Below are positions 23,644-63,076 of a stretch of DNA of 64,000 bases, piece after piece. The position numbers were made by a program, and so were the translations under genes. The stretch spans positions 434,001 to 498,000 of the forward strand of contig JAFFJZ010000075.1 in the NCBI GenBank assembly GCA_018340375.1. The letters are read 5' to 3'. This DNA comes from Gonatopus flavifemur (lineage: Eukaryota > Arthropoda > Insecta > Hymenoptera > Dryinidae). Position 1 is the first letter of the stretch. Each line of letters starts with the position of its first letter. Below the pieces are notes generated by a model that searched no databases, was not told the origin of the DNA, and worked only from the letters and a program-made list of their open reading frames with translations.

Positions 23644-24935
23644 CAGGTTGGTTGAAAAGTTCCTGCGCTCACCAAGAGATAGCACTGCTAGCTCAGAACT
23701 TTTTTTTTTCTCAAGTTGGTATATCTGTCCTGAGAACACATGCGAAGTTACAAGTCATTCTGTCAATTCATTCTTTGTTTACAAGCCATTTGAAGTTGAC
23801 GTGTCATTGATTTTTCTTAATATGGAAAAAATTGAATATCGTGCAGTTATTAGATTCTTTGTTTTGAAGGGTTTAAAAGCAAAGGAAATTTATGAACAAT
23901 TGTTAGAAGTGTATAAGGAGTCCTCACCTTCAAAACGCACCGTTGAATTTTGGACTGGTGAATTTAAACGTGGTCGTACTAGCCTTGAAGACGATCCACG
24001 CGAAGGACGACCAAAAATTGCAACCACAGCAGAAATCATTGAGCATGTACATAATATGGTTAGTGAAGATCCAAGTTTGACTAAGCGTGAAATTGCTAAT
24101 GCCATAGGCATCTCAGACGAACGAGTACTCCATATTTTACATGAAGAATTACGTATGAAAAAACTGTTTGGAAAATTAGTGCCACACACGTTAACAATTC
24201 AACAAAAACTGGATCGAAAACAAATTTCTCAGCGTAATTTGGAGCGTTTCAAGCAGAATAAAACCGACTTCTTGCGTCGTTTTATAACTATGGATGAGAC
24301 TTGGATCTACCACCATGATCCTAAATTGAAACAAGAACGTTTACAGTGGACTGAAGCTGGTTGTTCAGCTCCAAAGCAGGTGAAGTCACAACGATCAGCA
24401 AAGAAGGTTATGGCATCAGTTTTTTGGGATGCAAAAGGAATTTTGTTCATTGATTATCTTCAGAAAGGTAAAACAATCAACTCCGAATATTACTGCAGCC
24501 TTTTGGATCAGCTGGATGAAAAAATTCGTGAGAAAAAACCTGGTTTAAAGAAGAAAAAAATCATTTTTCATCAAGATAATGCACCTGCTCACAAAAGTGT
24601 TTTGACGATGGCTAAATTCAAAGAACTCAAGTACGAATTGCTTGAACATCCACCGTATTCGCCATATTTGGCTCCTAGCGACTATTATCTCTTCAGAAAT
24701 CTCAAACAATTCCTTCGTGGAAAGCATTTTTCGTCGAATGAAGAGGCCATAGCAGCCGTAGACGGTTATTTTGCAGAGCTTCCGGAAAACCATTATAAGG
24801 ATGGGATAAAATTATTGGAAGATCATTGGAACAAGTGTATTGAGCTTCTAGGAGATCATATTGAATAAAAAAATATATTTCGTAACAAAAACAGTATTCT
24901 TTCATTTCGAGCGCAGAAACTTTTCAACCAACCTG
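23644..24935 (+). mobile_element. Complete mariner transposon, TA target duplication
   Basis: Inverted ends of 28 bp, CAGGTTGGTTGAAAAGTTYC + TGCGCTC, match on both sides with one difference, and each is bounded by TA (23642-23643, 24936-24937). The length of 1292 bp is standard for mariner. It landed 155 bp downstream of the transposase-USP stop codon. Confidence 0.95.
23822..24868 (+). CDS. mariner transposase (DD34D), intact
   Basis: An uninterrupted 348-codon frame starting MEKIEYRAVIRFF. I chose this ATG because upstream codons in the same frame run into the TIR and 5' leader. The N-terminus carries two helix-turn-helix motifs (residues about 1-110, ending EIANAIGISDERVLHILHEEL). LVPHTLT matches the family WVPHEL linker. 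Catalytic triad: Asp158 in MDETW, Asp252 in HQDNAPAH and Asp287 in YSPYLAPSDYYLF, with exactly 34 residues between the last two, the mariner signature. It performs cut-and-paste transposition at TA sites. Nothing visible inactivates it, so it is young or recently active. Confidence 0.95.
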   Translation: MEKIEYRAVIRFFVLKGLKAKEIYEQLLEVYKESSPSKRTVEFWTGEFKRGRTSLEDDPREGRPKIATTAEIIEHVHNMVSEDPSLTKREIANAIGISDERVLHILHEELRMKKLFGKLVPHTLTIQQKLDRKQISQRNLERFKQNKTDFLRRFITMDETWIYHHDPKLKQERLQWTEAGCSAPKQVKSQRSAKKVMASVFWDAKGILFIDYLQKGKTINSEYYCSLLDQLDEKIREKKPGLKKKKIIFHQDNAPAHKSVLTMAKFKELKYELLEHPPYSPYLAPSDYYLFRNLKQFLRGKHFSSNEEAIAAVDGYFAELPENHYKDGIKLLEDHWNKCIELLGDHIE

Positions 24936-29015: not shown

Positions 29016-29977
29016 TTATTCAACATAGTTGCCTCCGAAGGCGATACAACGAGTATATCAAACTTTTCGCTACCACTTTTGTAGGACGATTTCTCTTCCT
29101 CTTCGAAATAGGCCTCAGTTTCAGCGATTACTAACTCCACCATTGGACTCAAATTCCTCTCCAGCAAGCATTCTCTTGAGAACTGAAAACAAGAAAAAGT
29201 CGCTGGAGCCTGAATCTGGAGAACACGATAGATGAGTAATTCGAAGCCCAATTCATTTATTTTGGCCATCGTTTTCATTGATTTGTGACACGATGCATTG
29301 TCTTGGTGAAACAACACTTTTTTCTTCCGCAAATGTGGCCGTGTCTTTGCGATTTCAGCCTCCCATCGATCCAAAAGTGCACAATCATAGTCGCTGTTGA
29401 TGTCGGTTCCTCTTTGGAGATAGTCGATGAATATTATCACATCCCAAAATACGGACGCCATCACCCTACCGGCTGACTATTGCGTCTTTGCTGGCTTTGG
29501 ATTGGATTCGTCGACTGCTGTCTACTCAGCTGACTGTTTGGATCCTTGTGTGTAATGTTGAAGCCATGTTTCATCCATATTTTGTCACATATTAACGATA
29601 GAATTCGATTTTATTGCGGTTTAACAGCGCCAATACTTCTCTGAAGCATGATTTCGTTGTTGTTTTTGATCGACTGTGAGCTCACGCGGCACCCACTTGG
29701 CACAGAGCTTCCGCATACCCAAATGTTCGTGTAAAAATGATGGAAACACTACCATCTGATATCTTTACAATGTGAGCTAGCTCGTGCACCTTCAATCCGC
29801 GATCGTCAATAACCATTTTGTGGATTTATCCATGTTTTCTGGAATAACAGCCTCATTTGCGCGTCCATTGCGCTCTGCATCATTTGTGCTGGTACGACCA
29901 CGTTTAAATTTAGCAATCCACTTCTCTACCATTTCTCTCGATGGAGCAGAGCCCGGATAATGTTCATCAAGCCATTG
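29016..29977 (-). pseudogene. Dead mariner transposase, main part
   Basis: Minus-strand mariner of a different lineage from 23822-24868. Recognisable blocks: WLDEHYPGSAPSREMVEKWI, FKRGRTSTNDAERNGRANEA, MDETWLQHYTQGS (first Asp), MASVFWDV, INSDYDCALLDRW, VLFHQDNASCHKS (second Asp), SSDFFLFSVLKRMLAG (third Asp, in another frame), and the end NYVE followed by a stop at 29016. Stops interrupt the MDETW-to-MASVFWD stretch, and there are frameshifts before the third Asp and near the C-terminus. The N-terminal codons lie 3.26 kb away at 33236-33313, on the far side of the Transib-like insertion. Confidence 0.85.
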
Positions 29978-32900
29978 CACAGTGGGGTATTCGATTCATT
30001 TGACCGGCCAAAAATCAATTCCATGAAAGTTATCGTAGGTTGATCAGAAGTATTGCTTGAAGTTGTTCAATAATTGGGCAATTGAAGCCGGTCGTCTTTC
30101 CTTGCCTCTCATCATCCTCTAACCTAGGATATCAGGTGAAATTCCGTGATATTTAATTGTGCATTATATTTGACATCTGAGACTTTAAGTGGGTATTAAT
30201 GACTAATGAACGCAGAATAATTTTTATAGTATGGAGTGCGTTGAAACAGGTGAGAAAGAGTACGGTGAATGTGTTTTTGCAAGAATTCGTTGAATTTTAA
30301 GCAATCAGGTCTCATCAAACAGACGCAATTGAAAACCATTTCATTTTAGTCTGTTCTATAGAGTAAAATGATAATTTTGTTACATTTCCGGGGCTCTCCG
30401 GATATTTTGCTTGATATCCTGATGAAGTTGAAGGTTTTAGCTTCAAGAATATTGAAACAGAGACTGCGGATTCAATAAATCACGTACATTGGAATCATTT
30501 CGTGTTTTACGAAATTCTCACCGAGTTGGTATCCATTCTTTTGTAATGATGATTTATTCCTCCTCAGGTCCTTCTGGAATGAGAAAGGTGAGGAGAAAGG
30601 AGTTGTTTGATGTGATGCGACAGCAAAATGATCTCAATATTGACAAACAATTAGATTTCGTTGAAAGTTCTGTACTTCGTTCTGATGCTTTCTCAGAAGA
30701 ACAAATAAGACAAATTGAACATAAGTTTCCCTATTTCAAATCAGACATGAAACAAAGGTGGACAGTATCGCATAGGAAAGAAGCTATTTCCTCAAAAAAT
30801 AATGATACTTGGCTTCAAGGAACGATTGAGTTACCTAGAAAAACAGTGCGACCAGGGCGCCCGACAAAAACTTTAGAAGAATCCAGTGACCGTAGCAAGA
30901 GACGTAAGACAGAGACGTTCCGTGGTAACATGAACAGTGATCAATTAATTTCTGTCGTCCGAACTCAATTATACGTTGAAGGCAAAAGACAATCTTCTGG
31001 GATATTCAAAGAAATTACAAGCTCTCTAACCCGAGCAAAAAAAAAAAAGCAGCATACGCAAAATCATTATCAAACCAACCGTTACAACTGACACCTGTGC
31101 AAGCATTAGCAATGTTCGTCGAAGCTGGTCTCTCCAAAAAGCGATATGACATAATCAGATACACTAATAAACAGATGTACCCTTGCTATTCCATTTTACA
31201 GACAGCGGAATTGGAATGTTATCCACCTAAACAGTCATACTACGTGACAGCGACCCAAGCTGAAGTCAATTTACAGGACTTAGTATCCCATACCATCACT
31301 CGATTGTTCACGTATTTGGAGGACATGCTATGTACGGTGGATGAAGAAGACAAGAATACCTTAACACTTATTTATAAATGGGGTTGTGATGGATCACAAC
31401 AAACGCAATTCAAACAAAAATTTGAAAACGATGCTGATTCTGACGCACATATTTCTCAAAGTTCTTTTGTGCCATTACAGTTGAATTGCGGCCAGGAGGA
31501 AAAAACGTATCATTTGGCAGAACCCAACCCCATCTCCGCCTCGATATTGCCGACTCATCAGGATCAGATTTATTAAAGAATCCACAAATGTTATTAACGA
31601 TGAAATTGAATATGTACAAAATTCAATCAACCGCTTAGAAGATACTCAAGTCATATAAGCCCAAAGAACATATTCTGTCAAACATTCCTTTATTCTGACA
31701 ATGATTGATGGAGAAGTGTGTAACGCTGCCACCCGGACATCATCGACTATGAAATGCTACATATGTGGGGCAACTTCTAAGAATTTCAATGATTTATCAA
31801 CGATTAAAAACGTCAATGAAGATGCTTTGGAGTTCGGATTATCGATTTTACACGCCCGAATAAGGCTTTTCGAGAGTTTATTACATTTGGCTTACAAATG
31901 ATCGGTGAAAGAGTGGCAATTGAGAGGAGAAAATGATAAGAATATCGTGAAAGAGAGGAAGGTGCAGCTGCAAAAAGAATCCAAAACTCGAATGGGTCTC
32001 CTTGTCGATATCCCTAAGTCTGGTTTCGGCAATACTAATGACGGAAATACAAGTAGACGATTCTTCACAAGTCCACACTTGGCAGCAGAAATAACAGGCT
32101 TAGATTACAATTTGATATACCCCATTAGAGTTATTTTGGAGACAATATCTAGCGGCTATCATATTGATTTAGAGAAATTTGTGGATTATACGATGAATAC
32201 AGCAAAGCTATACGTCAAATTATATAGCTGGCATCCTATGACACCCACTATGCACAAAATCCTGATACACGGACCAAGTATTGTACAACATGCTTTACTG
32301 CCCATGGGACAGTTGTCTGAAGAGGCAGCAGAAGCAAGAAACAAGCACTTTCGATTGTATCGGAAAAAGTTTGCACGAAAATTTTCCAGAGAAGCGTGTA
32401 ATTTAGATGTTTTGAACACACTTCTTCTCACTTCAGATCCTCTCCTAACTGGATTGAGGCCAATACCTAAAAAGAGAACCAGACCCTTTTTTAAGGAAAC
32501 AGTAGAAATGCTTCTCTTACCCGAAGATGTGAAAAAACACGACACAGAAAGGAACATTCCATCAGACGATCAAGGACTTTCTGACGAGCCAGATTCAGGC
32601 GAAATATCATCAGATGAAGATCAGTTTTAAGATTTTAATCGCTATTGAAACGGTAAATTGAACTTTTTAGTTGATAGAAGTTTATTGACTTTATATTGTA
32701 TTTATTGGAAGCTTTGTATTCGAGTTCATTTTCTTATGTCAGGAAAATTGTATAATTTCATTTTAAAATTGAACTTGTATGATTTCAAATAAGAAATTTA
32801 TATTGAAAATGTCATCAGCTTATTACAGCGCTTGAATATATTCTTGTATTTTATGAGTTCTCTTGTCTTTAATTTATTTTTGTATTCTCAGAAATTTGTA

Positions 32901-33235
32901 TTTGTATTTACGTATCTCCATTTTCTTAGTCGATTTGTCTATTTTTCATTCCATTCACATAATCTTAGAGAATTATTCTCAAAACTGAACCAGGATTATT
33001 ATGGAATCTAAATATTCTCGTGACAGAAATGAATTTGATGTCTGGGACATAACATACATTGGCTCTGATCCATAATCAGAACCATACTTATAATAACAAT
33101 GAAAAATTCACCAAAGTCTCTGAAAAGGATTTCTATTGTCAATAAGACTCTACATAACTGGAAATAGATTAATCCAAAATGAATTTTCTACAAGAAATGA
33201 TTTGTCCGGCTAAATCAGACAAATACCCCACTGTG
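29978..33235 (+). mobile_element. RAG1/Transib-like DNA transposon, complete ends
   Basis: 3258 bp. Both ends begin CACAGTGGGGTATT, and similarity continues for about 36 bp (CCGG near position 28). The 5-bp word CATTG flanks both sides (29973-29977, 33236-33240). CACAGTG equals the V(D)J recombination signal heptamer, and 5-bp duplications are the rule for Transib and RAG transposons. The insertion splits a mariner ORF in frame, so the empty site is known. It contains one two-exon transposase pseudogene on the plus strand. The 580 bp after that gene are AT-rich and featureless. Confidence 0.9.
30231..32630 (+). pseudogene. RAG1/Transib-like transposase
   Basis: Exon 1 is 30231-30249; the intron is 30250-30567 (GTGAGA...TCCTCAG); exon 2 starts at 30568, giving MECVETGPSGMRKVRRKELF. 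An AT-hook-like RPGRPTK and a basic stretch follow. The catalytic core matches RAG1 in order and spacing: Asp in WGCDGSQQ (31388, cf. RAG1 D600), Asp in MIDGEVCN (31707, cf. D708), zinc Cys pair CYIC (31755, cf. C727/C730), zinc His pair HKILIH (32253, cf. H937/H942) and Glu in SEEAAEARNKHFR (32331, cf. E962). The tail is acidic. Breaks: a frameshift in an A run near 31040, a frameshift near 31503, TAA 31656 and TGA 31899. All catalytic and zinc residues survive. No RING domain is seen. Confidence 0.85.
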
Positions 33236-33313
33236 CATTGTTCGGTTTCCACTGTATCTTTTCTCATCAAAAAAGCAATACTTGATCAAAACTCGAAATT
33301 CATTTTTTTCCAT
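33236..33313 (-). pseudogene. Dead mariner transposase, N-terminal part
   Basis: The minus strand from 33313 reads MEKNEFRVLIKYCFLMRKDT and continues to the target duplication at 33236-33240. Its frame continues exactly into WLDEHYPGS at 29977. This proves the intervening DNA is an insertion and gives its precise ends. Confidence 0.85.
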
Positions 33314-33479
33314 CTGTTTTCAATAACAAAAGTTGCTCCACACAAAATGCTATGACTCACGAATTAATAGTCAGATGTCTATCAAAATTACACATGTATC
33401 GTTTGAGGGTTAGTAATAGATAAAAATCATATGGAAAAAATTCTGGTAACGCCATCTATGTGTCATCCTGCGGACTTTT

Positions 33480-33960
33480 TGAATGGACTCCCTTGTGAGA
33501 ATATTGCTCCGCCAAACTACGCCGAAAACTATGAAATTTTACGTCAATCTACGTCGTCCTGCTCGGCATAAAATCACGTAATTGGGCGTAAATGAGAAGA
33601 CGTACTCCCTATGCGCTGCTACGCGCTTCTACGCACTTCTATGTGTTTTTGAGCAACGCGGGTTGGAGAAGCGTATTGGCCGTAAACAAACGTGCATTGG
33701 CGTAGAAAACTATGTATTTCTACGGAACACTACTACCCCGCATGTGTTCCGTCCATTTTTTTTGGAAGACTCAGCGTAGTAAATCGTACTTTGGCGAATA
33801 GAGTACGGCGTTTCACGCCGTTCTACGTATTCCCACTCATGCACATACCTCGCTATTCAGGCCCGACTCTTGAACGTAGAGTGGTGTACTTTCGCTAGGA
33901 AATACGTAGAAAACTATGAATTTTTACGAAACACTATTACCCTGCCAGCTTCAATCCTAA
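33480..33960. repeat. TACG-rich block with internal duplication
   Basis: Unusually rich in CTACG/CGTAG words. ACGTAGAAAACTATG followed by a TTTTACG-AACACTA phrase appears near 33700 and again near 33905, about 200 bp apart. No protein motif. Probably part of an unidentified element. Confidence 0.5.
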
Positions 33961-59805: not shown

Positions 59806-61241
59806 TCAAAACAAAGAGAGGATGTTACACCTCTTCCTTTTTTTTGGACAAATCTTGGGGAAGATTTGGCACCTGATAAACTCATTCAAACAATACGGGC
59901 GTTTCATATTATTTTCAGTCGTCGATGATGTTGAAGGAATAACAGCATATTCTGGATTCCCCGATGTTGTGTTGTGCATATGGAGTGTTGGATACATTTC
60001 AGCCGATTCGTCTTTAGAATCATCCTTTTCCATCTCAACATCATCCTTTCCTTTTGATTTCTTCGGATTTCCCAGGTGCAATGAAAGGTTCGTTATTGAA
60101 TCCCATATAGCCCCAAGTAGTAAGAATGAACAGCCATAAAATGCATGTGAGGCATAACCATGTATCAGTGTGTCCACGGTCAGGTTTATTGTTTCACAAC
60201 ATAAGTATATTCCGAATATACCAGCTGTTGCCGACCCGAAGGTAATAAAGGAACCCCAAACCCTTTCGAAGGTAGATTTGGCGATCCGCTGCAACGCTTC
60301 TTCGTCTAATAGATGAGTCATTGACATCCCCGTTATTATTACTGGTTGACCCGTCATACCCCGCGCAATGGTATTGAGCACGGCAGGCTTTTCAATCGGA
60401 GACATAATATTATCCCTCAGTCTTTCCAAGTCTTCATCGGAGTAAATTCCACTGTTCGCGAGGTATTTTGGACTTATGTATTTCCATGTCACTTCAGACA
60501 TTGGTTTCATCATCGTGGGTGACAGTGTGAGTGTTGGAGTCGGTATCATTTGATACCATCCATTCCCAATATAATCCATCGGTGGTAGAAATGAGTTACA
60601 GTCGATTTGTGTCCCAGTTTTTGTGATTATGTGTGTGCGTGGTTTCAAAAATAGACTGTGATTCCCAATTGTGATAGGTAATTCGTGAAAACAAGTGTTT
60701 GTTCTTCTTTTCGTGGCATCCACGGGGACGCATTTAATAATATGGACGACTTCTCCGGAGGGCCCGGCCATATATCCTGGTCCTTTCATCAAACGAAAAG
60801 TGAATTCATCCGGTGGGTTAATCGCATTCGTTAATGAATTTCTGAGTACTTGTTGCCCCAATTGACATCGGTGCATGGTCATGTCTTTGTATAAATTATT
60901 CATTTGTGTGTGTATATGTCTTTCAACAGATACAAATTTTGAATTCAGAGAGACGAATAAATCCAAATTTTCGGTTCCTAGACGTTGTTTAGATGCGAAA
61001 GTATTCCCATCTTTGGTTTCGAGAAAGAATAATTTTGGAGGTTCTGTTTTTATTAGAGAATAACCACATACTTTTTCTCCTCCAACTTGCGCCAGAGCAA
61101 ATGAAGTATCCTCTGTTGTTAGCGAGTGGATTGTTTGAGTTCCATCAGTAGTTTTATCCTTCATTCTGAATGCAACTCCTTCATATATGACTTCATAGTC
61201 GCTAAAATGACAGATATCTCGCGGGATTGTATCCCAGGAAG
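59806..61241 (-). CDS. Chuvirus-type glycoprotein, C-terminal part
   Basis: Open frame of about 478 codons to the stop at 59806, running unbroken from the MITE border at 61241; the internal ATG at 61164 is not the true start. It matches the ectodomain and anchor of the glycoprotein found in chuviruses and captured as env by BEL/Pao retroelements. Visible: conserved Cys residues, the central block MKGPGYMAGPSGEVVHIIKC, TQIDCNSFLPPM, YISPKYLANSGIYSDEDLER, a membrane-spanning segment (about AGIFGIYLCCETINL) and a basic, Cys-containing cytoplasmic tail. The role in the source virus is membrane fusion. Whether this copy came from a virus or through a retroelement is open. Confidence 0.8.
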
Positions 61242-61243
61242 TA

Positions 61244-62436
61244 AGGTCACTGACCCCATTAACGAACGCAACCCCTTTCGTGAACCTCGAGATAATAAAA
61301 CCTCTTTTACGAACAAGAAGTGTTTACCTATTACGTGCTGTGGAGATTATTCCAATCTTCAAACATTATTGTTCCTGATTATTGCGAAAACAAATGGAAG
61401 AAAGAAAAATGTAATTCACGAAATAAATAAAGATTCATGCCGAGTGTCACAACGAGCTTTGCCTTCGTGAATCTTACAAGGTGAGTTGAGAATGGACATT
61501 TTTCAATTGTGCATTCCCATAGTATTAATGCGACCATTGAACTATTTTATGTATCCAATCTACTGATATTATTCAAATTAAGATAATATAGGGTTATTTT
61601 CAATAACTGTCAGTCGCTAACCAAGACAATTGCGCGTTCAGAAATACATACACGAAAATGATCGGTGAATCTATTACTGAACGAATAAACATAACAATTC
61701 ATATCATTGGTATCTACTCTAGGAAAATTTTCTCATGAATTCACATAATGCGCATAATTTTTCAATCAATCTATGAATTCCTCCGAGGATTGGAATAAAC
61801 ATGTAAAATTATAAACTCTACTTGAAATTCTCAATTTTTTTCGCCAAAGTAACTCAAGCAGCAACAGAAGTTCGAAGTATATATAATTAAAAACGTTGGT
61901 AGAATTTGAGAATGAGATACGAAGAACATATCATGAAAGTTCATAGAATATATGAATGAGACTGTTTTAAATATCCTCGAAACTTACATAGTACATTTGA
62001 AATGTACGATATTCATTCAATCGACGTTCGACTGACGTCCCGTCATATATTCGATTACATACGTTCGATGAATATGCATAGCACCTATGGAAAGGTCTCA
62101 TTAGAATGTGCACAGAATATATTTCGAATATCATCAGGCAAGTGATGATAACTCATCTGAGCAGCCTTAGATTCTACGCGTTCAGTAAGGGGGTCAATCA
62201 GCGTTCACTAATTCATGCGACCCGTTCACTAATGGGGGTATTGTTAACATTCCATTAATTTCATTATTTTCATTGTTATCACTTAGAGAATGAATGAAAA
62301 ATCACGGTAAGAGAAAATTGAAATGCTCAATCTACCTTATTTACTCGTGGAAATTCATTTGAAAGAAATTATCCATGAAATAATTTATATTCAGAGTGCT
62401 TGTGTTCCTAAATGTTCACTAATGGGTCAGTTACCT
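61244..62436. mobile_element. 1.19-kb TA-flanked MITE inside the glycoprotein gene
   Basis: The ends AGGTCACTGACCCCATTAAC (left) and AGGTAACTGACCCATTAGTG (right, read inward) are inverted, with TA at 61242-61243 and 62437-62438. CGTTCACTAATGGGGGTA recurs inside near 62210. No protein. The reading frame of the glycoprotein is the same on both sides once the element and one TA are discounted, so the insertion is the break. Confidence 0.9.
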
Positions 62437-63076
62437 TATATCCATCTTCATTGTCGAGGCAATATCCATCTGTGTGTTGACACACGGTTCCTGAATGGGG
62501 ATGTATTTTGTTGTTATCCAAATTAACAACAGCTCGATACGACTTCAGGGTGATTTTAATGATGGCTTGGACGATTACATCATCCCATGATCCGTATAGG
62601 TCAGAGTACGATACTCCATCACAATCTCCATCTGAGTTGACGTTGCCTGCTAATATTGTTTGTCTAACGTCGGTCATATTGTTTTTCAATCCAGTCATTA
62701 TATTATTGTGTGGTAAATACAATGTTCCGGTTTTATGCAATCCTTTGCATTGAGTTTTCCCTATTTCCGTCACATATTGAGCTATCCCATCAGTGACAGC
62801 AGAAAGATGTGAAAACATTCCGCATCGATACACCATGCGTTGAATAGTAATTTTACATTGGTGGATGCCTGCTTTGTCATATTTTGTCAATTGTAACAAT
62901 TGGACATTCGTTTTGGTTACATTGGGCTCTATATTGGAGATGACGCATTCTCCCACGTTGAATGAAGACAGCGTGGTAATGTTGAGATTAGGCGTACCGC
63001 AATCATACCCTATGATTGCAGGAGTAAGGGTAATACATGTCGATGTCAAGATGATAGTCAACAATAGTCTCTGCAT
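62437..63076 (-). CDS. Chuvirus-type glycoprotein, N-terminal part
   Basis: Starts at 63076 with a signal peptide (MQRLLLTIILTSTCITLTPA) and then IIGYDCGTPNLNITTLSSFN, the Cys/Asn motif that opens chuvirus-type glycoproteins. Further Cys residues and N-glycosylation sites (NIT, NVT, NMT) and SYSDLYGSWDDVIVQAIIKI follow. About 213 codons run open to the MITE border; the extra dozen codons to the stop at 62408 are MITE sequence. Together with 59806-61241 the gene would span about 690 codons with no other lesion. Confidence 0.85.

What the first reader, a model, noticed from the sequence alone, without database searches (positions are those of the whole stretch)
29978..33235. RAG1-like transposon with CACAGTG ends in an insect genome
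The element carries the full RAG1/Transib catalytic set (Asp, Asp, CxxC zinc pair, HxxxxH zinc pair, Glu) in order, ends that begin with exactly the V(D)J heptamer CACAGTG, and a 5-bp duplication CATTG. Ends, duplication and protein agree independently. Transib ends are usually given as CACWATG, so an exact CACAGTG is notable for RSS evolution.
Basis: partly seen in the sequence, partly recalled or inferred. Interest (0 to 1): 0.8.

Follow-up and report, generated by a model that had tools for sequence, protein, structure and literature searches.

The report
Broken Transib transposon, RSS-like ends
This is a dead copy of a known kind of insect jumping gene, Transib, a relative of the enzyme that shuffles our antibody genes; its exact antibody-type end signal turns out to be common among the related elements sampled in the same genome, so the find is sound but largely ordinary.

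Summary
Window 29978-33235 is a 3,258-bp element with CACAGTG at both ends and an exact 5-bp duplication CATTG, inserted in a mariner transposon; 40 of 40 scored genome matches of the joined flanks span the junction, i.e. empty sites.

It is an ordinary Transib: a profile of sister proteins scores 596 bits against Helicoverpa zea Transib, 56 against ProtoRAG, 46 against RAG1, and a tree sets RAG1/ProtoRAG apart (100/99). Whether a RAG2 partner exists stays open (searches without working controls).

The claimed surprise weakens. CACAGTG is at 15 of 17 termini of this family and at the end of 6 of 7 related groups that I could place (the seventh has CACATAG); the sample is of close relatives. 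Reviews already say that some Transibs have canonical heptamers. The host is very probably the pincer wasp Gonatopus flavifemur.

Further detail: both ends resemble 23-type RSSs (left nonamer 7 of 9). Derivatives that are long palindromes with two left ends exist: two intact ones with exact target duplications, two damaged. So identical ends were paired in nature. A new member of a known kind.

The parts
29973..29977 (.). target-site duplication CATTG, left
   Evidence: occurs once in the three empty mariner sites aligned
29978..30016 (+). left terminal repeat: heptamer CACAGTG 29978-29984, 23-bp spacer, nonamer-like CCAAAAATC 30008-30016 (7 of 9 of ACAAAAACC)
29978..30679 (+). left ~700 bp that forms each arm of the palindromic derivatives L047 and L050 and, in part, of the damaged ones L051 and L052
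30489..31091 (+). transposase fragment 1 (N-terminal part)
   Evidence: no Pfam match over a cut-off; shares by eye a GRP...RSKRRKT block with sister proteins
31097..31576 (+). transposase fragment 2, first catalytic Asp (codon at 31388)
   Evidence: HzTransib 6pqn E 3.6e-17
31701..31901 (+). transposase fragment 3, second Asp (31707) and CxxC (31755, 31764)
31905..32630 (+). transposase fragment 4, HxxxxH (32253, 32268) and Glu (32331)
   Evidence: HzTransib 6pqn E 3.2e-59, 49% over 208 columns
33197..33235 (-). right terminal repeat: heptamer CACAGTG 33229-33235 (read on -), 23-bp spacer, nonamer-like ACAAATCAT 33197-33205 (5 of 9)
33236..33240 (.). target-site duplication CATTG, right
29792..29977 (-). 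mariner transposase fragment interrupted by the insertion; the frame continues at 33241 on the minus strand
   Evidence: joined-flank translation ('mariner' is my reading of that frame, Pfam gave no match for the fragment); joined flanks match 40 of 40 scored copies

Best explanation
A fossil, once autonomous Transib transposon. Its DDE transposase would have nicked at the heptamer border, made hairpins on the flanking DNA and blunt element ends, paired the two ends and inserted them 5 bp apart at a GC-rich C-N-N-N-G site (the cleavage chemistry is inferred from the HzTransib and RAG literature; ends, duplications and empty site are shown here). The family was later interrupted by frameshifts and stops. 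It also gave rise to a non-autonomous palindrome with two left ends that was moved to several sites (the moves are shown by duplications; which transposase moved it is inferred).
For: Best solved relative HzTransib (profile 596 bits against 56 ProtoRAG and 46 RAG1). Tree places the three family copies among insect Transibs and RAG1/ProtoRAG apart, 100/99. Full catalytic set. Of 6 insertions with both ends, 4 have exact 5-bp duplications at the heptamer (window, L044, L047, L050). Empty site. C-N-N-N-G beside the end in 10 of 13 insertions of the family and two relatives, against 3.3% background; Drosophila transib2 is listed as CABHG / CCANTGG (PMC3276498 Table 4, passage). 1,058 related proteins for one sister protein; in the 120 listed, the rows that show an organism are insects.
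Against: All three full-length copies of this family are interrupted (longest stop-free frames 242, 275 and 289 aa), so activity is inferred. Right and left ends match only 28 of 40. Two of 17 termini deviate from CACAGTG (CACAATG in L044, CGCAGTG in L050). Two of 6 duplications are not clean: L043 has CAGCG with one extra base on the left, L051 matches 4 of 5. In the sister element L057 the 5 bases beside its two CACAGTG ends do not match.
Confidence: 0.96

Rival explanations
1. A RAG1L/RAG2L (ProtoRAG-type) transposon that has lost its RAG2L gene.
For: CACAGTG ends, 5-bp duplications and the RAG1 Pfam model (fragment 4: E 0.0061, 15.2 bits, below the cut-off of 25) would fit both.
Against: Ten times more bits for HzTransib than for ProtoRAG or RAG1; tree; the only frame of 200 aa or more in the sister locus L057 is its transposase. 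The RAG1 Pfam search of the genome gave 3 weak matches (best 26.7 bits; 68 of 127 candidates scored), but its controls were silent and it missed L057, which scores 36.4 bits with the same model, so it proves little.
Confidence: 0.02
2. A CACTA (EnSpm) element, as the published annotation style might call it.
For: Ends begin CAC; the genome paper gives 18.3% CACTA and its main text has no occurrence of Transib (PMC8314478, passages).
Against: The protein is Transib; the duplication is 5 bp, not the 3 bp of CACTA (the 3 is recalled).
Confidence: 0.01
3. A domesticated RAG1-like host gene.
For: All catalytic residues are kept.
Against: Broken frame, ends and duplications in place, other dispersed copies.
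Confidence: 0.01

Closest known systems
HzTransib of Helicoverpa zea (PDB 6pqn and others)
   Same: DDE, CxxC and HxxxxH in the same order; fragment 4 is 49% identical over 208 columns, E 3.2e-59
   Different: This copy is interrupted; ends start CACAGTG (HzTransib is recalled as CACGGTG, not checked)
Other Transib groups of this genome (L012-L038)
   Same: Same protein family, mostly the same CACAGTG end where placed
   Different: 51-64% identical to fragment 4, except L037 (47%) and L038 (49%); group A ends CACATAG
ProtoRAG of amphioxus / RAGL transposons
   Same: Heptamer-like end, 5-bp duplication, RAG1-type catalytic core
   Different: ProtoRAG end is CACTATG and RAGL elements carry RAG2L (passages of PMC8289069 and PMC7204232); 56 bits against 596
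V(D)J recombination signal (23-RSS) and RAG1
   Same: Exact heptamer, 23-bp spacer, 7 of 9 nonamer bases at the left end
   Different: Both ends of this family are of the 23 type; RAG1 pairs a 12-RSS with a 23-RSS and works with RAG2 (passages)

Membership tests
Transib | RAG1-type DDE core with CxxC and HxxxxH in order | tested here: met
   spread over three fragments
Transib | sequence closer to Transib than to RAG1/ProtoRAG | tested here: met
   tree (RAG rows fill 21-38% of the columns; HzTransib sits on a long branch)
Transib | 5-bp target duplication | tested here: met
   4 of 6 exact; L043 with one extra base, L051 4 of 5
Transib | inverted ends beginning CAC with a heptamer-like block | tested here: met
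   15 of 17 termini exact CACAGTG
Transib | one gene only, no RAG2 | tested here: inconclusive
   the next longest frame in 29700-33600 outside the transposase pieces is 123 aa, antisense to fragment 4; RAG2 Pfam search 0 matches, but its control rang in 0 of 14 genomes
Transib | hairpin-forming cleavage | not testable with these tools
   reported for HzTransib (passage of PMC6941560)
RAGL/ProtoRAG | convergent RAG2L gene | tested here: inconclusive
   none seen; profile search without working control
RAGL/ProtoRAG | protein groups with RAG1/RAG1L | tested here: not met
CACTA | CACTA-type transposase | tested here: not met
   the protein matches HzTransib; Pfam lists no Transposase_21 match for the fragments

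The most novel reading that the evidence does not exclude
Transib transposition in this genome pairs two identical 23-RSS-like ends (left with left), shown by palindromic derivatives with exact duplications; and because three of six sister groups carry A-rich nonamer-like blocks near both 11-12 and 23 bp within one end, the 12- and 23-RSS could both descend from one such double-spaced end by loss of one block or the other.
Probability: 0.1. Interest if true: 0.7.

Novelty: new member of a known kind. Interest (0 to 1): 0.3.

Why it matters
It points to an insect genome in which most of the Transib groups sampled end in the exact V(D)J heptamer, with a nonamer-like block at the 23-bp position: a source of natural ends for testing what RAG1 and Transib transposases require. 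The two-left-end palindromes are a natural experiment: this family did not need two different ends, so a 12/23-like asymmetry was not required for its transposition. Symmetric ends are already described for most Transib families (passage of PMC8289069), so this sharpens rather than overturns what is known.

Tried and rejected
RAG2 search in the genome: no match, control silent, so it proves nothing. RAG1 Pfam profile on the genome: 3 weak matches, controls silent, and it missed L057, so it does not exclude a ProtoRAG-type gene. The '1 TGA' in many 616-aa frames looked like a recoded or nonsense stop; in the one copy read (L055) it fits the start of a GT...AG intron, and the joined exons continue in frame. 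CACTA misannotation: matches to a CACTA-type transposase model exist too (90 matches at E up to 1e-3 among 138 scored), so how much of the published CACTA share is Transib remains open. Kapitonov & Jurka 2005 is not held. One search printed wrong nonamer columns and misplaced the ends of L026 and L032; one search replaces the nonamer scores.

Full report
What is there. Window 29978-33235 begins and ends with CACAGTGGGGTATT in inverted orientation and is flanked by CATTG on both sides. Of four open pieces inside, three carry, in order, Asp 31388, Asp 31707, Cys 31755/31764, His 32253/32268 and Glu 32331. The reading frame is broken: it shifts between the first and second piece and again in the second, and two in-frame stops separate the later pieces.

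It is a real insertion. Read on the minus strand, the left and right flanks join into one mariner-like transposase frame when the element and one CATTG are left out. The joined 240-base flank has 537 first-look candidates; 40 were scored and all 40 matches span the junction at 89-92% identity; three were aligned base by base and hold CATTG once.

It is Transib. Fragment 4 matches the Helicoverpa zea Transib transposase at E 3.2e-59 (49% over 208 columns) and fragment 2 at 3.6e-17. A profile of seven sister proteins of this genome scores 596 bits against that chain, 56 against ProtoRAG RAG1L and 46 against the best RAG1. A tree of 23 rows puts RAG1 and ProtoRAG on a branch of their own (100/99) and the three family copies together (100/100) among insect Transibs; the RAG rows fill only 21-38% of the columns, and HzTransib is a long branch near the base. 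One sister protein (L013) finds 1,058 relatives at E up to 1e-3; among the 120 listed are Periplaneta, Ceutorhynchus, Anticarsia, Osmia, Brassicogethes, Euphydryas, Pyrocoelia, Popillia and Chilo; most rows bear no organism.

Copies. The first 123 bases find 16 places, the last 136 find 4. Full-length copies: the window, L043 (94.6%) and L044 (92.7%); none has a stop-free frame above 289 aa. The 17 termini of the family in hand are CACAGTG in 15, CACAATG in L044 and CGCAGTG in L050. Of six insertions with both ends, four have exact 5-bp duplications at the heptamer: CATTG (window), CGTTG (L044), CGCTG (L047), AATCG (L050). L043 has CAGCG with an extra base on the left; L051 has CGCCC against CGCCT.

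The palindromes. L047 (1,383 bp) and L050 (1,402 bp) are near-perfect palindromes, 94.2% and 97.4% complementary to themselves, each arm being the left ~700 bp of the window element, so both ends are left ends. L051 (1,621 bp) has two left ends and the same centre, but much of its first arm is replaced; L052 has the same centre and lacks one terminus; L053 and L054 hold one arm up to that centre. Same centre, different target flanks: the simplest reading is that the palindrome arose once and was then moved with two left ends. That is evidence from sequence, not from an assay. No right-right derivative is among the 4 right-end matches.

Is CACAGTG special? For other loci I placed 3' ends where homology between copies stops and took the last TGTG near that boundary as the exact end, so the outermost bases are not fully free of the motif. 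This worked in 21 of 30 loci (L012-L038, L055, L057, L058; L056 is the same place as L013): 15 have CACAGTG, one CACAGTA (L020), five CACATAG (group A: L013, L015, L016, L017, L019). L026 and L032 were read by hand because misplaced them; L028 and L029 are near-copies including flanks. By group (my grouping by nucleotide similarity), 5 of 6, or 6 of 7 with the window family. Nine loci were not resolved (L012, L014, L024, L030, L035, L036, L037, L055, L058). Limits: 27 of the 30 loci are the hits next after the window's own family in a list of 150 scored of 1,883 candidates, so the sample favours close relatives. Reviews state that some Transib ends have heptamers and nonamers identical to those of RAG (PMC6941560, passages) and that Transib ends have symmetric 20-22-bp spacers or, in a few families, 12/23 asymmetry (PMC8355894, passages), while another says most Transibs are symmetric and that such ends have little or no similarity to the nonamer (PMC8289069, passages).

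Nonamer position. The left end has CCAAAAATC after exactly 23 bp, 7 of 9 bases of ACAAAAACC; the right end 5 of 9. Over ten ends (window left and right, two relatives, six other groups) the summed match is highest at spacer 23 (48; 0 of 2000 shuffles reach it), with a second, smaller rise at 11-12 (38 and 36; 11 of 2000 shuffles reach the value at 12). The 12-bp rise rests mainly on three groups (B, C, D). The groups share ancestry, so these are not independent counts.

Target. C-N-N-N-G beside the end in 10 of 13 insertions of the family and two relatives, and in 10 of 20 of other groups (one side only; L029 left out as a copy of L028), against 3.3% in the window. Drosophila transib2 is listed with CABHG or CCANTGG (PMC3276498 Table 4, passage).

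Host. The genome has 636.05 Mb, a contig of 81.22 Mb and one of 35.14 Mb. The Gonatopus flavifemur paper gives 636.5 Mb, maximum contig 81.2 Mb, contig N50 35.1 Mb (PMC8314478, passages). The best COX1 match is Dryinus, 85%, the next ones listed 80% or less (the copy searched may be nuclear). The identification is inference from these agreements. That paper's main text has no occurrence of Transib and reports 18.3% CACTA.

In print? I searched for palindromic or foldback Transibs with 'Transib' + 'palindrom' (36 papers, 15 listings seen) and Transib/foldback/inverted repeat/insect (105 papers with at least 3 terms, 15 listings seen) and saw none by title or abstract start; this is no proof of absence.

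Noticed in passing
L055:2978-3453 (G000:C24): A high-copy Transib family whose 616-aa frame seems to end in TGA after the catalytic Glu in many copies; in the one copy read the TGA lies at the start of a likely GT...AG intron, and the joined exons continue in frame.
   Followed up: partly
L013, L015, L016, L017, L019 (3' ends): A Transib group with ends CACATAG instead of CACNNTG, in five copies, with the same subterminal GGGTATTTCG.
   Followed up: partly
whole genome G000: The published annotation (PMC8314478) has no Transib in the main text and 18.3% CACTA; Transib copies may have been counted as CACTA, though matches to a CACTA-type transposase model are present too (90 among 138 scored).
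   Followed up: partly
window 23648-24868: A 406-aa open frame that looks like a mariner-type transposase, apparently uninterrupted.
   Followed up: no
window 59806-61164 and 62408-63076 (-): Two open frames that look, by eye, like pieces of an envelope-type glycoprotein; only observed.
   Followed up: no
L062-L064 and other COX1 matches: 24 matches to COX1 on many contigs, most with TGA codons in frame, so nuclear copies of mitochondrial DNA are probably frequent.
   Followed up: no
L020, L021, L022, L025, L031: Transib copies with an internal CACAGTGGAGT end that always follows the same flank, perhaps a nested relic copied along with the element.
   Followed up: no
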